Shown here in pieces: positions 22,863 to 27,511 of a DNA stretch of 52,818 bases. Within the stretch, counting starts at the first letter, position 1, and every line of letters begins with the position of its first letter. Source of the stretch: Moraxella sp. (GTDB taxonomy: Bacteria > Pseudomonadota > Gammaproteobacteria > Pseudomonadales > Moraxellaceae); NCBI GenBank assembly GCA_030530785.1, contig JAUMUJ010000012.1:1-52818 (forward strand), in the 5' to 3' direction. The position numbers and the translations under genes are program-made. Below the pieces are notes generated by a model that saw nothing but the letters and a program-made list of their open reading frames with translations, did no database searches and was not told the DNA's origin.

Positions 22863-23732
22863 ATGATTTCTAAAACAGCACGGTCAATGATTGAATTACT
22901 ATCACCATCAGGAGACATAAAGATTGCCAACGATTTGCCCTTTGTCTTATTCGGTGGTATGAATGTCTTAGAAAGTCGTGATTTAGCATTTGAGATTGCT
23001 AAGACTTATATTGAAATTTGCCAAAAACTAAATATTGGTTATGTTTTTAAGGCAAGTTTTGATAAAGCCAATCGTTCTAGCCTAACTTCATTTCGTGGAC
23101 ATGGACTTGAAAAAGGCGTACAATGGCTTGGCGAGATTAAAGATAAATTTAGCGTGCCGATTATTACTGACATTCATGAGCCATATCAAGCCGAAATGGT
23201 TGCCGAAGTGGCTGATATTTTACAGTTGCCTGCTTTTTTAAGCCGTCAAACCGACCTTGTAGAAGCAATAGCAAAAACAGGCAAAATCATCAACATCAAA
23301 AAAGCCCAATTTCTTGCTCCGCATGAAATGCGACACATCATCAGTAAGTGTCTAGAAGCGGGCAACGATAAGATTATCTTATGTGAGCGTGGTACGTCAT
23401 TTGGTTATAATAATCTTGTGGTGGATATGCTGGGCTTTGACACCATGAAAGCGATGAATGTGCCTGTATTTTTTGACGTAACGCACGCCTTACAAGAGCC
23501 AGGTGGGCGAGCTGACAGTGCAGGCGGTCGCCGTCATCAGATTACCACGCTTGCCCGAGCAGGCATGGCGACAGGATTGGCGGGACTGTTTTTGGAAGCT
23601 CACCCCGACCCTGATAAAGCCAAATGCGATGGTCCTTGTGCGTTAAGATTATCACAATTAGAGCCGTTTTTAACTCAATTAAAACAGCTGGATAACTTGG
23701 TCAAAGGGTTTAAGACGTTGGATACGCATTGA
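22863..23732 (+). CDS. kdsA: 3-deoxy-8-phosphooctulonate synthase KdsA
   Basis: Condenses phosphoenolpyruvate with arabinose-5-phosphate to KDO-8-phosphate for lipid A/core assembly. The 289-residue product matches KdsA throughout: [88 protein letters not shown]. Metal-independent type, as it lacks the Cys near the N-terminus that metal-dependent enzymes use in CGP-like motifs. The start at 22863 has AGGA nine bases upstream; ATG at 22857 is too close to that site. Confidence 0.95.
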
Positions 23733-23754: not shown

Positions 23755-24369
23755 ATGATAATAAAAAAGCCCCCCTTAATCATTGCTTTATTTGCTGTTG
23801 GTTTTATGATTAAGGCTAATGCCAATAGCCATACTGCTGTTACGGATTATACCACAACCACCGTCATTCGGAGTTTGCGTATTAAAAGCCCTGCATTGAC
23901 CGTAGATGATGTTTTAAACCGTATGGTGGATTTGGCAAATGATGGTAATATTTTAAATCTAAAAAAATCGGCAATCGCTCTTGGTGCTTATGATATTACC
24001 AGTGTGCCATTACGTCCCATCGCTAAGAATGACACTATCAGCTACATTTATCACAATCATGATAATGATTATCCAATAGCGTCTATCACGCACCGCATGA
24101 GTGTGGGGTGGTTTTTGGATATTGAACTTACTCAAGTGCATAAAAGCGTGAACATTGATTTTAAACCACAATTTTGTCCAAGCATTTCACAATTAAAAGA
24201 CAAATTTGGCGATGGTTTTCAATCATGGGAAGTACCAATCTCGCCCGATTTGGTTTCGGGCAAGGGTGGCAGTTACACCACATATCACATCATTACCAAA
24301 AAATATTTGATTTTTATTGAAAATGATGGCTGTCAGTTTAATGTGGTGAGTAAGGCAAAGTTTGGGTAA
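23755..24369 (+). CDS. Hypothetical secreted protein, 204 residues
   Basis: Not recognised. The N-terminus has two lysines, a hydrophobic core and an ANA cleavage site near residue 24, so it is exported. The mature chain starts with a Thr-rich stretch, then a DUF302-like feel: VDDVLNRMVDLANDGNILNLKKSAIALGAYD. Two cysteines (in QFCPSI and DGCQF) could form a disulfide. It lies 22 bases after kdsA on the same strand, and its 3' end converges on the minus-strand lipoprotein array. It is one of the accessory genes separating kdsA from eno. Confidence 0.6.
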   Translation: MIIKKPPLIIALFAVGFMIKANANSHTAVTDYTTTTVIRSLRIKSPALTVDDVLNRMVDLANDGNILNLKKSAIALGAYDITSVPLRPIAKNDTISYIYHNHDNDYPIASITHRMSVGWFLDIELTQVHKSVNIDFKPQFCPSISQLKDKFGDGFQSWEVPISPDLVSGKGGSYTTYHIITKKYLIFIENDGCQFNVVSKAKFG

Positions 24370-24380
24370 TAAAAATAAGC

Positions 24381-24491
24381 AACGCCATTACCCTTAAAAA
24401 TGGCGTGCAGTTCGCTGTTTCTATCTATTCTTGACAGGCGGTCATTACTAATAATGTGGATAATGACACAAAAGCAAAATTTTTTTATCAT
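24381..24491 (-). pseudogene. Frameshifted remnant of a third paralogous lipoprotein gene
   Basis: Bases 24381-24442 match 25268-25330, inside the lipoprotein gene at 24956-25375, at 58 of 63 positions (four substitutions and one deleted base). The ATG at 24491-24489 overlaps the TGA of the preceding lipoprotein gene. If one A is removed from the A run after the ATG, the frame reads a full lipoprotein signal with lipobox VMTAC followed by QE, then a stop caused by the deleted base. In the next frame IDRNSELHAIFKGNG continues the family sequence, after which homology ends. This is a decayed third copy with at least two frameshifts and a lost 3' part. Confidence 0.7.
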
Positions 24492-24922
24492 AAATGGCGA
24501 CAATACTCTGTGGATAAAGTTATCTTGGCTTCATGATTTTCTTGTATGACACAAAAATCATTACCATGTGTACCATAACTGCGTTTTTTTGGGTGCATGC
24601 TCCACAAAGAAATGCTGTACCGCTGAATGGGAACGATGGCTTCCCAATCAGGAAAATTATCTTGATTAAATTCAATACAATGCTCTTGGTTGGGATAATG
24701 CTCCTCAAAGGTGTTTTCATAATACCAATCTTTGGTAATGCCTTGATGATGGGTATGTAGATTAAATTGGTATTTGCCCTTAAAATTTTTGTCTTTGATA
24801 TAAAAACAAGGGTTGCCATTTTGTAGGGTGATGTGCATTTCCCCGTGTTCATGCCTTTTTTTACAGGAAGTGATTGGTAATATTAGTAATAAGCACATCA
24901 CTGTAACTAATTTATGTTTCAT
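24488..24922 (-). CDS. Lipoprotein, paralogue A of a tandem pair
   Basis: A 144-residue lipoprotein: signal peptide with lipobox ITSC (Cys20). The mature part shares most positions of the following blocks with the neighbouring gene at 24956-25375: GEMHITLQNGNPCFYIKD, NFKGKYQFN, EEHYPNQEHCIEF, NFPDWE, YSISLWSMH, THGNDFCV. Four conserved cysteines after the lipid anchor suggest two disulfides in the periplasm. No known family is recognised. It lies 33 bases after paralogue B on the same strand, behind a metallopeptidase-like gene. That placement, and the tandem copies, suggest an immunity- or inhibitor-like role; this is inference. Confidence 0.72.
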   Translation of the reverse strand: MKHKLVTVMCLLLILPITSCKKRHEHGEMHITLQNGNPCFYIKDKNFKGKYQFNLHTHHQGITKDWYYENTFEEHYPNQEHCIEFNQDNFPDWEAIVPIQRYSISLWSMHPKKRSYGTHGNDFCVIQENHEAKITLSTEYCRHL

Positions 24923-24955
24923 GATTAAAATTTTCTAGTAAGAATAATAATATAA

Positions 24956-25375
24956 TCAGGTTTTGGGGCAACCAACTTCTTTGGGTTCAATGAGTTTAGT
25001 GATGCCCTTTTCTTGTTTCACACAAAATCCACCTCCATGACTGCCATAAAAATCTTTGTGTTTACTCCATAAGGATATGGTATAATAAGTGTCAAGTTGC
25101 AGTGTGTTCCAGTAAGGGAAATTGGTTACATTTATGACAATACAATTTTCTTTATTGGGATAATGAACTTCGTAACTGCTTGTGTATGTCCAAATTTTTG
25201 GTTCATGTAAGATTTGTATGTTTAATTCATAATTTCCTTTAAAATTATCATCATCAATATATAGGCAAACGTCATTACCCTTAAAAGTGGCGTGCAGTTC
25301 GCCGTTTTTATCTATTTCTTGACAGGCGGTTATGAATAATGGTGATAAAAATAATAGACAGCCTAAATGTTTCAT
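24956..25375 (-). CDS. Lipoprotein, paralogue B of a tandem pair
   Basis: A 139-residue lipoprotein with lipobox ITAC (Cys18). The mature chain parallels paralogue A: GELHATFKGNDVCLYIDD, NFKGNYELN, EVHYPNKENCIVI, NFPYWN, YTISLWSKH, SHGGGFCV, so the two arose by tandem duplication and have diverged to roughly half identity by eye. The ATG at 25375 has an AAGGAG site nine bases upstream; the open frame further upstream overlaps the metallopeptidase gene. Only 13 bases separate it from the stop of that gene, so they are almost certainly one operon. Confidence 0.72.
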   Translation of the reverse strand: MKHLGCLLFLSPLFITACQEIDKNGELHATFKGNDVCLYIDDDNFKGNYELNIQILHEPKIWTYTSSYEVHYPNKENCIVINVTNFPYWNTLQLDTYYTISLWSKHKDFYGSHGGGFCVKQEKGITKLIEPKEVGCPKT

Positions 25376-25388
25376 AAGTATCATCTCC

Positions 25389-25958
25389 TTAATAACTGGT
25401 GATGATACCACGATGGGCGGGATTGGCAATAAAGGGTTTTAAGATATTAAGTAGCACGTTTTTTTGTGCATCGGTTCTGTTTTTTGGATTGATTTTAAGA
25501 TAACGAATGGCGTAATATTCAGCAATCATGCTGGCTTGCTGTTCAATATTAAACTGTGAAAATTTTTTGTTTTTATCTTGGGCAGACAGACCATAATCAT
25601 AAGCGTCCCATAAAAAATAGCCACCCGTAATGCCGATGGTCAGCCCACAACCTGCCACAGAGATACCCATCGTGCGTTGCCAAACATGAGCCATTTCATG
25701 AATGAATAGGATTTTGTAGTCATTTTCTCTTTGAGAAAAGTCTTTAATTTTATCATATGTGTTGTCAGAAAAATGAATGTCGCCAAAGGGTGTCATGGCA
25801 TTATTGGACAGATTGGGCATTCCCAAAAGCCCGCCCCGTATGATTTTAACCTTACCATAATCAATGCTGTTTTTAAATACCAGCTTTGCCATCGTAATCT
25901 CACCTGTGGTCAGTGAGCGAGATGTGGTCTTACGAATGATGCGTGTCGTGATGCTCAT
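25389..25958 (-). CDS. Small HExxH zinc-metallopeptidase-like protein (possible effector)
   Basis: A 189-residue protein with a zincin motif, His87-Glu88-x-x-His91 in LFIHEMAHVWQ. A candidate third ligand is Glu147 in the helix MIAEYYA, 56 residues later. The N-terminal part AKLVFKNSIDYGKVKI with GGLLGMPNLSNNAMTPFG resembles small proteins that I recall being labelled 'Rhs/type VI-associated' in Acinetobacter. There is no signal peptide; a glycine-rich hydrophobic stretch follows the motif (about 101-116). The ATG at 25958 has an AAAGGA site; the frame extends upstream without support. It is the first gene of an operon with two paralogous lipoprotein genes. A toxin role is inferred from that arrangement. 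Confidence 0.65.
   Translation of the reverse strand: MSITTRIIRKTTSRSLTTGEITMAKLVFKNSIDYGKVKIIRGGLLGMPNLSNNAMTPFGDIHFSDNTYDKIKDFSQRENDYKILFIHEMAHVWQRTMGISVAGCGLTIGITGGYFLWDAYDYGLSAQDKNKKFSQFNIEQQASMIAEYYAIRYLKINPKNRTDAQKNVLLNILKPFIANPAHRGIITSY

Positions 25959-26071: not shown

Positions 26072-27511
<1,440 letters not shown>

What the first reader, a model, noticed from the sequence alone, without database searches (positions are those of the whole stretch)
24381..25958. Candidate toxin-immunity module: HExxH metallopeptidase-like gene followed by tandem paralogous lipoprotein genes
A 189-residue protein with HEMAH is followed 13 bases later by a lipoprotein gene, then 33 bases later by its paralogue, then by a decayed third copy. 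Tandem, diverging and decaying copies of one small exported gene behind an enzyme gene are the usual look of effector/immunity loci under conflict. The block sits between kdsA and eno, normally close neighbours in this family, which supports acquisition. The lipoproteins match no family I recognise. That the enzyme is a toxin and the lipoproteins are immunity proteins is inferred from layout alone.
Basis: partly seen in the sequence, partly recalled or inferred. Interest (0 to 1): 0.78.

Follow-up and report, generated by a model that had tools for sequence, protein, structure and literature searches.

The report
Detached Tpe-type toxin with tandem immunity genes
A Moraxella-like bacterium carries a gene that looks like a known weapon enzyme (one that rival bacteria inject into each other's cell envelope), followed by two related surface proteins that look like its antidote, but the parts that normally load and fire the weapon were not found; it is a clear new example of a known kind of system rather than a new kind.

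Summary
At 25389-25958(-) lies a 189-aa zincin with HEMAH; 13 bases on, lipoprotein A (24956-25375); 33 bases on, paralogue B (24488-24922); then a 72-bp stub of a third copy (24381-24452, 89% identical to A). In 299 Moraxellaceae genomes, 23 of 29 other enzyme loci scoring 77 bits or more have NF045616 matches directly downstream (10 of 29 with two to eight). PAAR genes lie upstream in 24 of 29 loci tested. The block is absent from the kdsA-eno interval of 18 of 18 other genomes of the genus, is AT-rich, and groups with Acinetobacter/Psychrobacter modules rather than with the paralogue resident in the same genome: it was acquired. What differs: no PAAR beside it, and no VipA, VipB, VgrG, Hcp or TssK match in this 87%-complete draft, although two PAAR genes exist elsewhere. 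Most likely a detached effector-immunity cassette, kept now mainly for protection. Toxicity and neutralisation are untested. New member of a known kind.

The parts
25389..25958 (-). Tpe-type zinc metallopeptidase (zincin), 189 aa, no hydrophobic N-terminal stretch seen; candidate periplasm-acting toxin
   Evidence: phmmer to PDB 6h56_A E 4.4e-15; 46-51% identical to three Acinetobacter PAAR-linked enzymes; tree; hydropathy
25686..25700 (-). HEMAH zinc-binding/catalytic motif (residues 87-91)
   Evidence: H87, E88, H91 invariant in all 23 aligned sequences (these were partly picked by that motif); an HExxH in the same context is found in 52 of 54 loci picked without it
25542..25544 (-). Glu139, presumed third zinc ligand
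   Evidence: invariant in all 23 aligned sequences; aligned with the IEQQ glutamate of VgrG2b; zinc role inferred
24956..25375 (-). Lipoprotein A, 139 aa, NF045616 family, candidate immunity protein
   Evidence: NCBIfam NF045616 50.7 bits, cut-off 50; lipobox ITAC, four mature cysteines shared by six proteins
24488..24922 (-). Lipoprotein B, 144 aa, NF045616 family, tandem paralogue of A
   Evidence: NF045616 57.7 bits; 43% identical to A; lipobox ITSC, four mature cysteines
24381..24452 (-). 72-bp stub of a third lipoprotein copy, derived from A
   Evidence: 89% nt identity over 73 columns, E 1.8e-21
22863..23732 (+). kdsA, left boundary
   Evidence: PF00793
23755..24369 (+). Small protein (204 aa, exported by look) sharing the interval; homologues (36-39% identical) lie in the same interval of G005, G008 and G012
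   Evidence: no family over cut-off
26198..27511 (+). eno, right boundary
   Evidence: PF00113, PF03952

Best explanation
The block is a Tpe-Tpi type effector-immunity module. Shown by sequence: the enzyme belongs to the VgrG2b C-terminal metallopeptidase family and keeps its invariant residues; the two lipoproteins belong to NF045616, a family found directly behind such enzymes. Inferred from the proven members: if placed in the periplasm of a rival, the peptidase damages the envelope, while the lipoproteins, anchored in the producer's own periplasm and stabilised by disulfides, bind and block it. Inferred for this genome: the cassette came by horizontal transfer from the Acinetobacter/Psychrobacter pool, inserted between kdsA and eno, and is detached from the PAAR tip protein that usually precedes it. 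With no type VI secretion core found, its present value is most likely protection against Tpe-armed neighbours, with duplicated and diverging immunity copies widening or renewing cover, and the toxin gene retained but probably not fired, or fired only if an unassembled T6SS is present.
For: 6h56_A match E 4.4e-15 over residues 13-150. H87/E88/H91/E139 invariant in 23 aligned sequences. NF045616 above cut-off for both lipoproteins, NF045617 'putative T6SS immunity periplasmic lipoprotein' below cut-off. In 299 Moraxellaceae genomes, 23 of 29 non-window enzyme loci of at least 77 bits have NF045616 downstream on the same strand, 22-108 bp between match edges, 10 of 29 with two or more matches, eight in G244. 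PAAR upstream in 24 of 29 loci examined; in G005 PAAR and enzyme are one 405-aa frame followed by two paralogous exported proteins, with VipB and TssK on the same contig within about 13 kb. Four conserved cysteines, as cysteines are reported for the proven immunity family. Tree: window in an 18-row set (SH-aLRT 96) with 15 NF045616-linked rows, apart from the resident paralogue. GC 36.1%; 9 of 482 non-overlapping windows of that size are as low. G017, without detected T6SS core, keeps a near-identical immunity pair (95.8 and 97.5% aa) with only a 3' remnant of the toxin gene, showing that immunity can outlive the weapon in this genus.
Against: No PAAR beside the module (best E 0.25) and no VipA, VipB, VgrG (PF05954), Hcp or TssK match in the genome, so the weapon may not be deliverable; but the draft is 87% complete and holds two PAAR genes, so a T6SS cannot be excluded. 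Lipoprotein A only just passes the NF045616 cut-off (50.7 against 50). 6 of the 29 enzyme loci, and 20 of all 45 non-window rows entered, lack a downstream NF045616 match. An intact toxin frame is not what a pure defence relic predicts. The function of NF045616 is inferred from linkage, not tested.
Confidence: 0.85

Rival explanations
1. Live T6SS cargo: the organism has a T6SS that is missing from the draft assembly, and the enzyme is loaded in trans by one of the PAAR/VgrG proteins elsewhere.
For: Genome 87% complete in 57 contigs; two PAAR genes, one in a 612-aa frame on C26, one a short frame at the start of C27; the two other PAAR-positive genomes of the genus (G005, G012) both have VipB and Hcp; eno is about 98% identical to theirs.
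Against: Five core families give no hit in G000; the C27 PAAR does not follow the ClpB-type ATPase gene that precedes PAAR in G005 and G012; only 3 of 22 genomes of the genus have VipB, and one of these (G003) has no PAAR match, so the two do not always go together.
Confidence: 0.3
2. Orphan immunity with a dead passenger: only the lipoproteins matter; the enzyme is a relic that has lost its delivery part and will decay.
For: G017 and G013 carry NF045616-type immunity genes without a cognate toxin gene found beside them and without VipB, Hcp or TssK matches; G284 has an in-frame stop in its enzyme beside an open NF045616 frame, with no PAAR within 1.5 kb and no VipB or TssK; a second enzyme copy in G000, on C47, appears broken near its 5' end.
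Against: The window enzyme is full length with all invariant residues; one lipoprotein copy has itself decayed.
Confidence: 0.35
3. Housekeeping protease with unrelated lipoproteins.
For: Related short enzymes occur in 20 of 22 genomes of the genus, in two forms, with no NF045616 match near them.
Against: The window enzyme is in a different clade, is absent from this interval in 18 of 18 relatives examined, and its relatives are linked to NF045616 in 23 of 29 loci.
Confidence: 0.03
4. Addiction-like element: the pair acts within its own cell and lineage, the enzyme reaching the periplasm by leakage or another route, so that loss of the lipoproteins is punished.
For: 7 of 23 NF045616-linked modules lie in five genomes without VipB and TssK matches; enzyme relatives occur in 45 of 72,556 plasmid records.
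Against: No N-terminal export signal seen in the enzyme; PAAR lies upstream in most loci tested and 15 of 23 carrier genomes have VipB; PAAR genes may simply outlive recent T6SS loss.
Confidence: 0.08

Closest known systems
Tpe1-Tpi1 of Acinetobacter baylyi (ACIAD0053-ACIAD0054)
   Same: Same enzyme family, small envelope-exposed immunity gene directly downstream (PMC6899460, passages); Acinetobacter Tpe1 genes usually sit next to PAAR genes (PMC6838775, passages)
   Different: Here no PAAR, no T6SS found, immunity proteins are lipoproteins rather than helix-anchored, and there are two plus a stub. ACIAD sequences were not fetched or compared here
VgrG2b C-terminal domain and PA0261 of Pseudomonas aeruginosa
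   Same: Homologous zincin domain (6h56), periplasmic immunity protein with cysteines
   Different: There the enzyme is fused to a VgrG spike; here it stands alone. PA0261 was not compared in sequence
PAAR-enzyme fusion with two exported paralogues in G005 (taken to be Moraxella lacunata NCTC10359 because a 682,084-base contig of that record, equals its contig C4)
   Same: Enzyme followed by two tandem paralogous exported proteins with weak NF045616/NF045617 matches
   Different: Enzyme fused to PAAR, inside a T6SS region
T6SS immunity gene arrays of Vibrio cholerae (PMC5361080, abstract and outline), loci with several immunity genes in Acinetobacter baumannii (PMC6833914, passages), orphan immunity genes of rAID clusters (PMC12247911, abstract and outline)
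   Same: Extra or orphan immunity genes kept beside or away from effectors
   Different: In the V. cholerae and A. baumannii cases the extra genes match other effectors; here the tandem copies are paralogues of one family behind an intact enzyme. No recombinase array was seen or searched for

Membership tests
Tpe-Tpi metallopeptidase effector-immunity family | Zincin domain homologous to VgrG2b C-terminal domain | tested here: met
   E 4.4e-15 to 6h56_A
Tpe-Tpi metallopeptidase effector-immunity family | HExxH plus downstream Glu | tested here: met
   H87, E88, H91, E139 present and invariant in 23 aligned sequences
Tpe-Tpi metallopeptidase effector-immunity family | Small envelope-targeted protein encoded directly downstream | tested here: met
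   13-base gap, lipobox
Tpe-Tpi metallopeptidase effector-immunity family | Partly conserved cysteines in the immunity protein | tested here: met
   four invariant mature cysteines in six proteins
Tpe-Tpi metallopeptidase effector-immunity family | Sequence homology of the lipoproteins to PA0261 or ACIAD0054 | not tested
   Neither sequence was fetched; only NF045617 similarity below cut-off
Tpe-Tpi metallopeptidase effector-immunity family | Carrier link to PAAR or VgrG at the locus | tested here: not met
   no PAAR in the window, best E 0.25; no PF05954 match in G000. Cargo members without a fused carrier are reported, so this bears on delivery more than on membership
Tpe-Tpi metallopeptidase effector-immunity family | T6SS in the genome | tested here: inconclusive
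   no VipA, VipB, VgrG, Hcp, TssK match in an 87%-complete draft with two PAAR genes
Tpe-Tpi metallopeptidase effector-immunity family | Toxicity in the periplasm and neutralisation by the partner | not testable with these tools
   needs bench work
NF045616 (Acin_mostly_LP) | Score over curated cut-off of 50 bits | tested here: met
   50.7 and 57.7 bits
NF045617 (putative T6SS immunity periplasmic lipoprotein) | Score over curated cut-off of 43 bits | tested here: not met
   26.6 and 30.3 bits
eCIS core domain PF13699 | Score over gathering cut-off of 22 bits | tested here: not met
   15.6 bits

The most novel reading that the evidence does not exclude
Tpe enzymes that have shed their PAAR carrier, in genomes without a T6SS, are not relics but in use: released by another route or acting as a self-stabilising pair, with the lipoprotein tandem evolving as a growing defence array. 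Seven linked modules in five genomes without VipB and TssK matches would then be a second way of life of the family.
Probability: 0.1. Interest if true: 0.65.

Novelty: new member of a known kind. Interest (0 to 1): 0.4.

Why it matters
It ties NF045616, a curated family whose NCBIfam description states no function, to immunity against Tpe metallopeptidases: 51 of 72 NF045616 matches in 299 Moraxellaceae genomes (the window's two included) lie in chains behind such an enzyme. It also shows that in this genus effector-immunity cassettes and bare immunity genes persist where no T6SS core was found (G000, G017, G013), which makes the question of why cells keep a toxin they apparently cannot fire testable with small genes in laboratory strains.

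Tried and rejected
Considered and rejected: housekeeping protease (other clade, not constant); eCIS cargo (PF13699 below cut-off); anti-phage defence genes (no PADLOC match for five proteins); a phage-borne module (1 of 50,697 phage records, a VgrG-like gene; 3 viral contigs, not examined further). A PAAR remnant in the window was sought and not found. A T6SS empty-site test was not done, because the genes flanking the cluster differ between G005 and G012 (read by eye).

Corrections and limits: the eno query was out of frame by one base; one search repeats it in frame. VipB alone misses G216, which has TssK, so G216 is not counted as T6SS-negative; the VipB-based tests below still count it as negative. 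The 77-bit threshold was chosen after seeing the list; of all 45 non-window rows entered, 25 have NF045616 within 1.8 kb downstream. Those rows are the top of the listing, itself cut; all 72 rows were entered, and some of the matches counted in chains carry stops (one in G216). Enrichment of VipB among carriers (15 of 23 genomes against 99 of 275, p 0.007; NF045616 carriers 23 of 31, p 2e-5) is not corrected for relatedness. The 29 loci (L002, L136-L163, about the best per genome) are not the same set as the 29; PAAR further than 1.5 kb away would be missed (as at L148, where the longer L033 shows one). The tree is a quick one without bootstraps and warns of long branches; 7 of the 29 loci gave no row by its motif and length filter (L138, L150, L154, L155, L158, L159, L161), at least three of them NF045616-linked. 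The orphan immunity pair of G017 differs from G005 by 11 non-synonymous and 7 synonymous codons in all, too few for a selection claim. The +2 residues printed are wrong (taken after the first cysteine, not the lipobox one) and are not used. The promoter scan found no more promoter-like sites than shuffles (10 against 11.4). Two fragments behind the C47 enzyme copy match no Pfam family, so calling them toxin remnants would be a guess by eye. Gene names not given by a call (kdsA for the DAHP-synthase-family gene, dgt, rarA, clpV) are recalled; Pfam agrees in kind.

Full report
WHAT IS THERE. On the minus strand between kdsA (22863-23732) and eno (26198-27511), both on the plus strand, three genes run in one direction: a 189-aa protein with HEMAH (25389-25958), lipoprotein A (24956-25375) and lipoprotein B (24488-24922), with gaps of 13 and 33 bases. 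Beyond B, 24381-24452 is a stub 89% identical over 73 columns to nt 36-108 of gene A. A and B are 43% identical in protein and match at 262 of 410 aligned bases; the stub matches A at 65 of 72 and B at 43 of 69. So there were at least two duplications of different age, and one product has been reduced to a stub.

THE ENZYME. Pfam and NCBIfam give no hit over cut-off. Against solved structures at E 0.001 it matches one sequence, 6h56_A, the effector domain of Pseudomonas aeruginosa VgrG2b, E 4.4e-15 over residues 13-150. Aligned with 22 relatives, H87, E88, H91 and E139 are invariant; the relatives were partly found by the motif, but an HExxH in the same context is also found in 52 of 54 loci picked without it. 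No long hydrophobic stretch is seen at the N terminus. In the published work the VgrG2b domain is a periplasmic antibacterial toxin blocked by the periplasmic protein PA0261, with disulfide formation needed for efficient protection, and with Tpe1-Tpi1 of A. baylyi it is proposed as the Tpe-Tpi family (PMC6899460: passages and section 10). That paper already notes cargo, PAAR-fused and VgrG-fused forms, lipoprotein immunity in Enterobacteriaceae, and homologues in Sphingomonadaceae, which rarely have a T6SS.

THE LIPOPROTEINS. Both score over the cut-off of NCBIfam NF045616, 'extracytoplasmic (lipo)protein' (50.7 and 57.7 bits against 50), and below that of NF045617, 'putative T6SS immunity periplasmic lipoprotein'. 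Both have a lipobox (ITAC, ITSC) and share four cysteines with the downstream proteins of three Acinetobacter and one Psychrobacter enzyme.

LINKAGE. Of 299 Moraxellaceae genomes, 263 have some relative of the enzyme at E 1e-5 and 32 have NF045616 at E 0.001, 27 of them over the cut-off. Among 29 enzyme loci of at least 77 bits other than the window, 23 have NF045616 directly downstream on the same strand (22-108 bp between match edges), 10 of them two or more: eight in G244, six in G276, four in G188. Of all 45 non-window rows entered, 25 do. Of 72 NF045616 matches, 51 lie in such chains, the window's two included; of the other 21, those of G126, G238, G266, G156 and G116 lie about 12 kb from a VipB gene. 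Copies with internal stops occur in G216, G116 and G230, so decay in this family recurs. A PAAR gene lies just upstream in 24 of 29 loci tested (L002, L136-L163), in two of them split between frames (L140, L145); the five without are L142, L148, L160, L162 and L163, the last three falling with the short resident type in the tree. Acinetobacter Tpe1 genes near PAAR are already in print: 20 near PAAR, one near VgrG (PMC6838775, passages).

ORIGIN. Of 22 genomes of the genus, 19 have a kdsA match. In the 18 besides the window's, the kdsA-eno interval and its flanks hold no match to the enzyme or either lipoprotein; the interval is 38-153 bp in 14 and 562-3495 bp in four, three of which hold other genes, among them homologues of the 204-aa protein at 23755-24369. 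The block is 36.1% GC against a mean of 44.3% (sd 3.3) for windows of that size; 9 of 482 windows that do not overlap it are as low. In a tree of 72 enzyme domains the window sits in an 18-row set (SH-aLRT 96) with 15 NF045616-linked rows, nearest to loci that equal named Acinetobacter records (L136, L139 and L140 match L027, L028 and L029 at 100% in the PAAR and lipoprotein queries), while the short type found in 20 of 22 genomes of the genus, G000 included, lies elsewhere, in two sets. The module is therefore best read as an acquisition, not a derivative of the resident paralogue.

DELIVERY. No PAAR is in the window (best E 0.25). In G000 no match to VipA, VipB, VgrG (PF05954), Hcp or TssK is found; in the genus VipB is in 3 of 22. 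Yet G000 has two PAAR genes, one in a 612-aa frame on C26 with a weak metallopeptidase match behind it (25.1 bits, cut-off 27) and one a short frame at the start of C27, followed by a gene with transposase-type helix-turn-helix matches; in the genus only G005 and G012, both with VipB and Hcp, have PAAR matches besides, while G003 has VipB and Hcp but no PAAR match. The draft is 86.92% complete. I put the chance that a T6SS exists but was not assembled near 0.3 (judgement). This state is not unique: seven of the 23 linked modules lie in five genomes, all at least 99% complete, without VipB and TssK matches (G160 three, G158, G284, G260, G067). In G284 the enzyme frame has a stop and no PAAR is seen within 1.5 kb.

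IMMUNITY WITHOUT WEAPON. G017, without VipB, Hcp and TssK matches, carries both immunity paralogues of G005 at 95.8 and 97.5% protein identity; the matching DNA begins within the last 159 bases of the G005 toxin gene, and the only enzyme match in G017 is the short resident type. G013, also without these core matches, has an NF045616 gene (101.8 bits) among insertion-sequence-like genes, and a relative (67% identical) of the membrane-anchored protein that follows another enzyme near VipB in G005. This supports a protective role of stranded immunity genes in this genus, as described for Vibrio cholerae arrays and rAID clusters (abstracts).

MECHANISM. Shown: family membership, intact invariant residues, linkage, duplication, decay; acquisition strongly suggested. 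Inferred from proven relatives: periplasmic peptidase attack and blocking by direct binding of the lipoproteins. Inferred from context: in this organism the cassette serves mainly as protection, the toxin being undeliverable or deliverable only by an unseen T6SS.

NOVELTY. New member of the Tpe-Tpi kind. Searches on VgrG2b/PA0261, orphan immunity, Moraxella T6SS, Tpe1/Tpi1 and multiple immunity genes show no title or abstract start on tandem NF045616 arrays behind Tpe enzymes, but the listings are partial and most subscription papers are not held. Loci with more than one immunity gene are known in A. baumannii (PMC6833914, passages). PMC6838775 (passages) mentions an unreported T6SS cluster in Moraxella and Neisseria.

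Noticed in passing
L095:6374-6859 (G000:C14) and L003-L007, L009-L022, L026: A short (about 160 aa) zincin of the same superfamily, in two forms, is present in 20 of 22 genomes of the genus, with no NF045616 match near it; in G000 it lies beside an HD-domain gene (dgt by recall). Such constancy suggests a role other than weaponry.
   Followed up: partly
L094:6718-8744 (G000:C47): A third, diverged enzyme copy whose N-terminal part appears to lie in another frame from the rest; two frames behind it match no Pfam family.
   Followed up: partly
L099:6339-7376 (G017:C13): Two immunity paralogues 96-97% identical to those of the T6SS-bearing G005, with only a 3' remnant of the toxin gene, in a genome without T6SS core matches.
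   Followed up: yes
G244:C1:408904-412996: Eight tandem NF045616 matches behind one enzyme gene, the longest array seen.
   Followed up: partly
window 23755-24369; L129-L131: The kdsA-eno interval is a variable spot: over 500 bp in 5 of 19 genomes, with relatives of the 204-aa protein in G005, G008 and G012; no family known.
   Followed up: partly
L126:7744-9582 (G000:C26) and L127:83-298 (G000:C27): A 612-aa PAAR frame with a weak metallopeptidase match at its C-terminal end, and a short PAAR frame next to a transposase-like gene, in a genome without detected T6SS core.
   Followed up: partly
L140 (G158, equal to Acinetobacter portensis L029) and L145 (G132): PAAR genes split between two frames upstream of full-length enzyme genes: the carrier seems to decay before the toxin.
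   Followed up: no
L083:1749-5537 (Spirulina sp.): A relative of the zincin motif near the end of a 1262-aa frame in a cyanobacterium.
   Followed up: no
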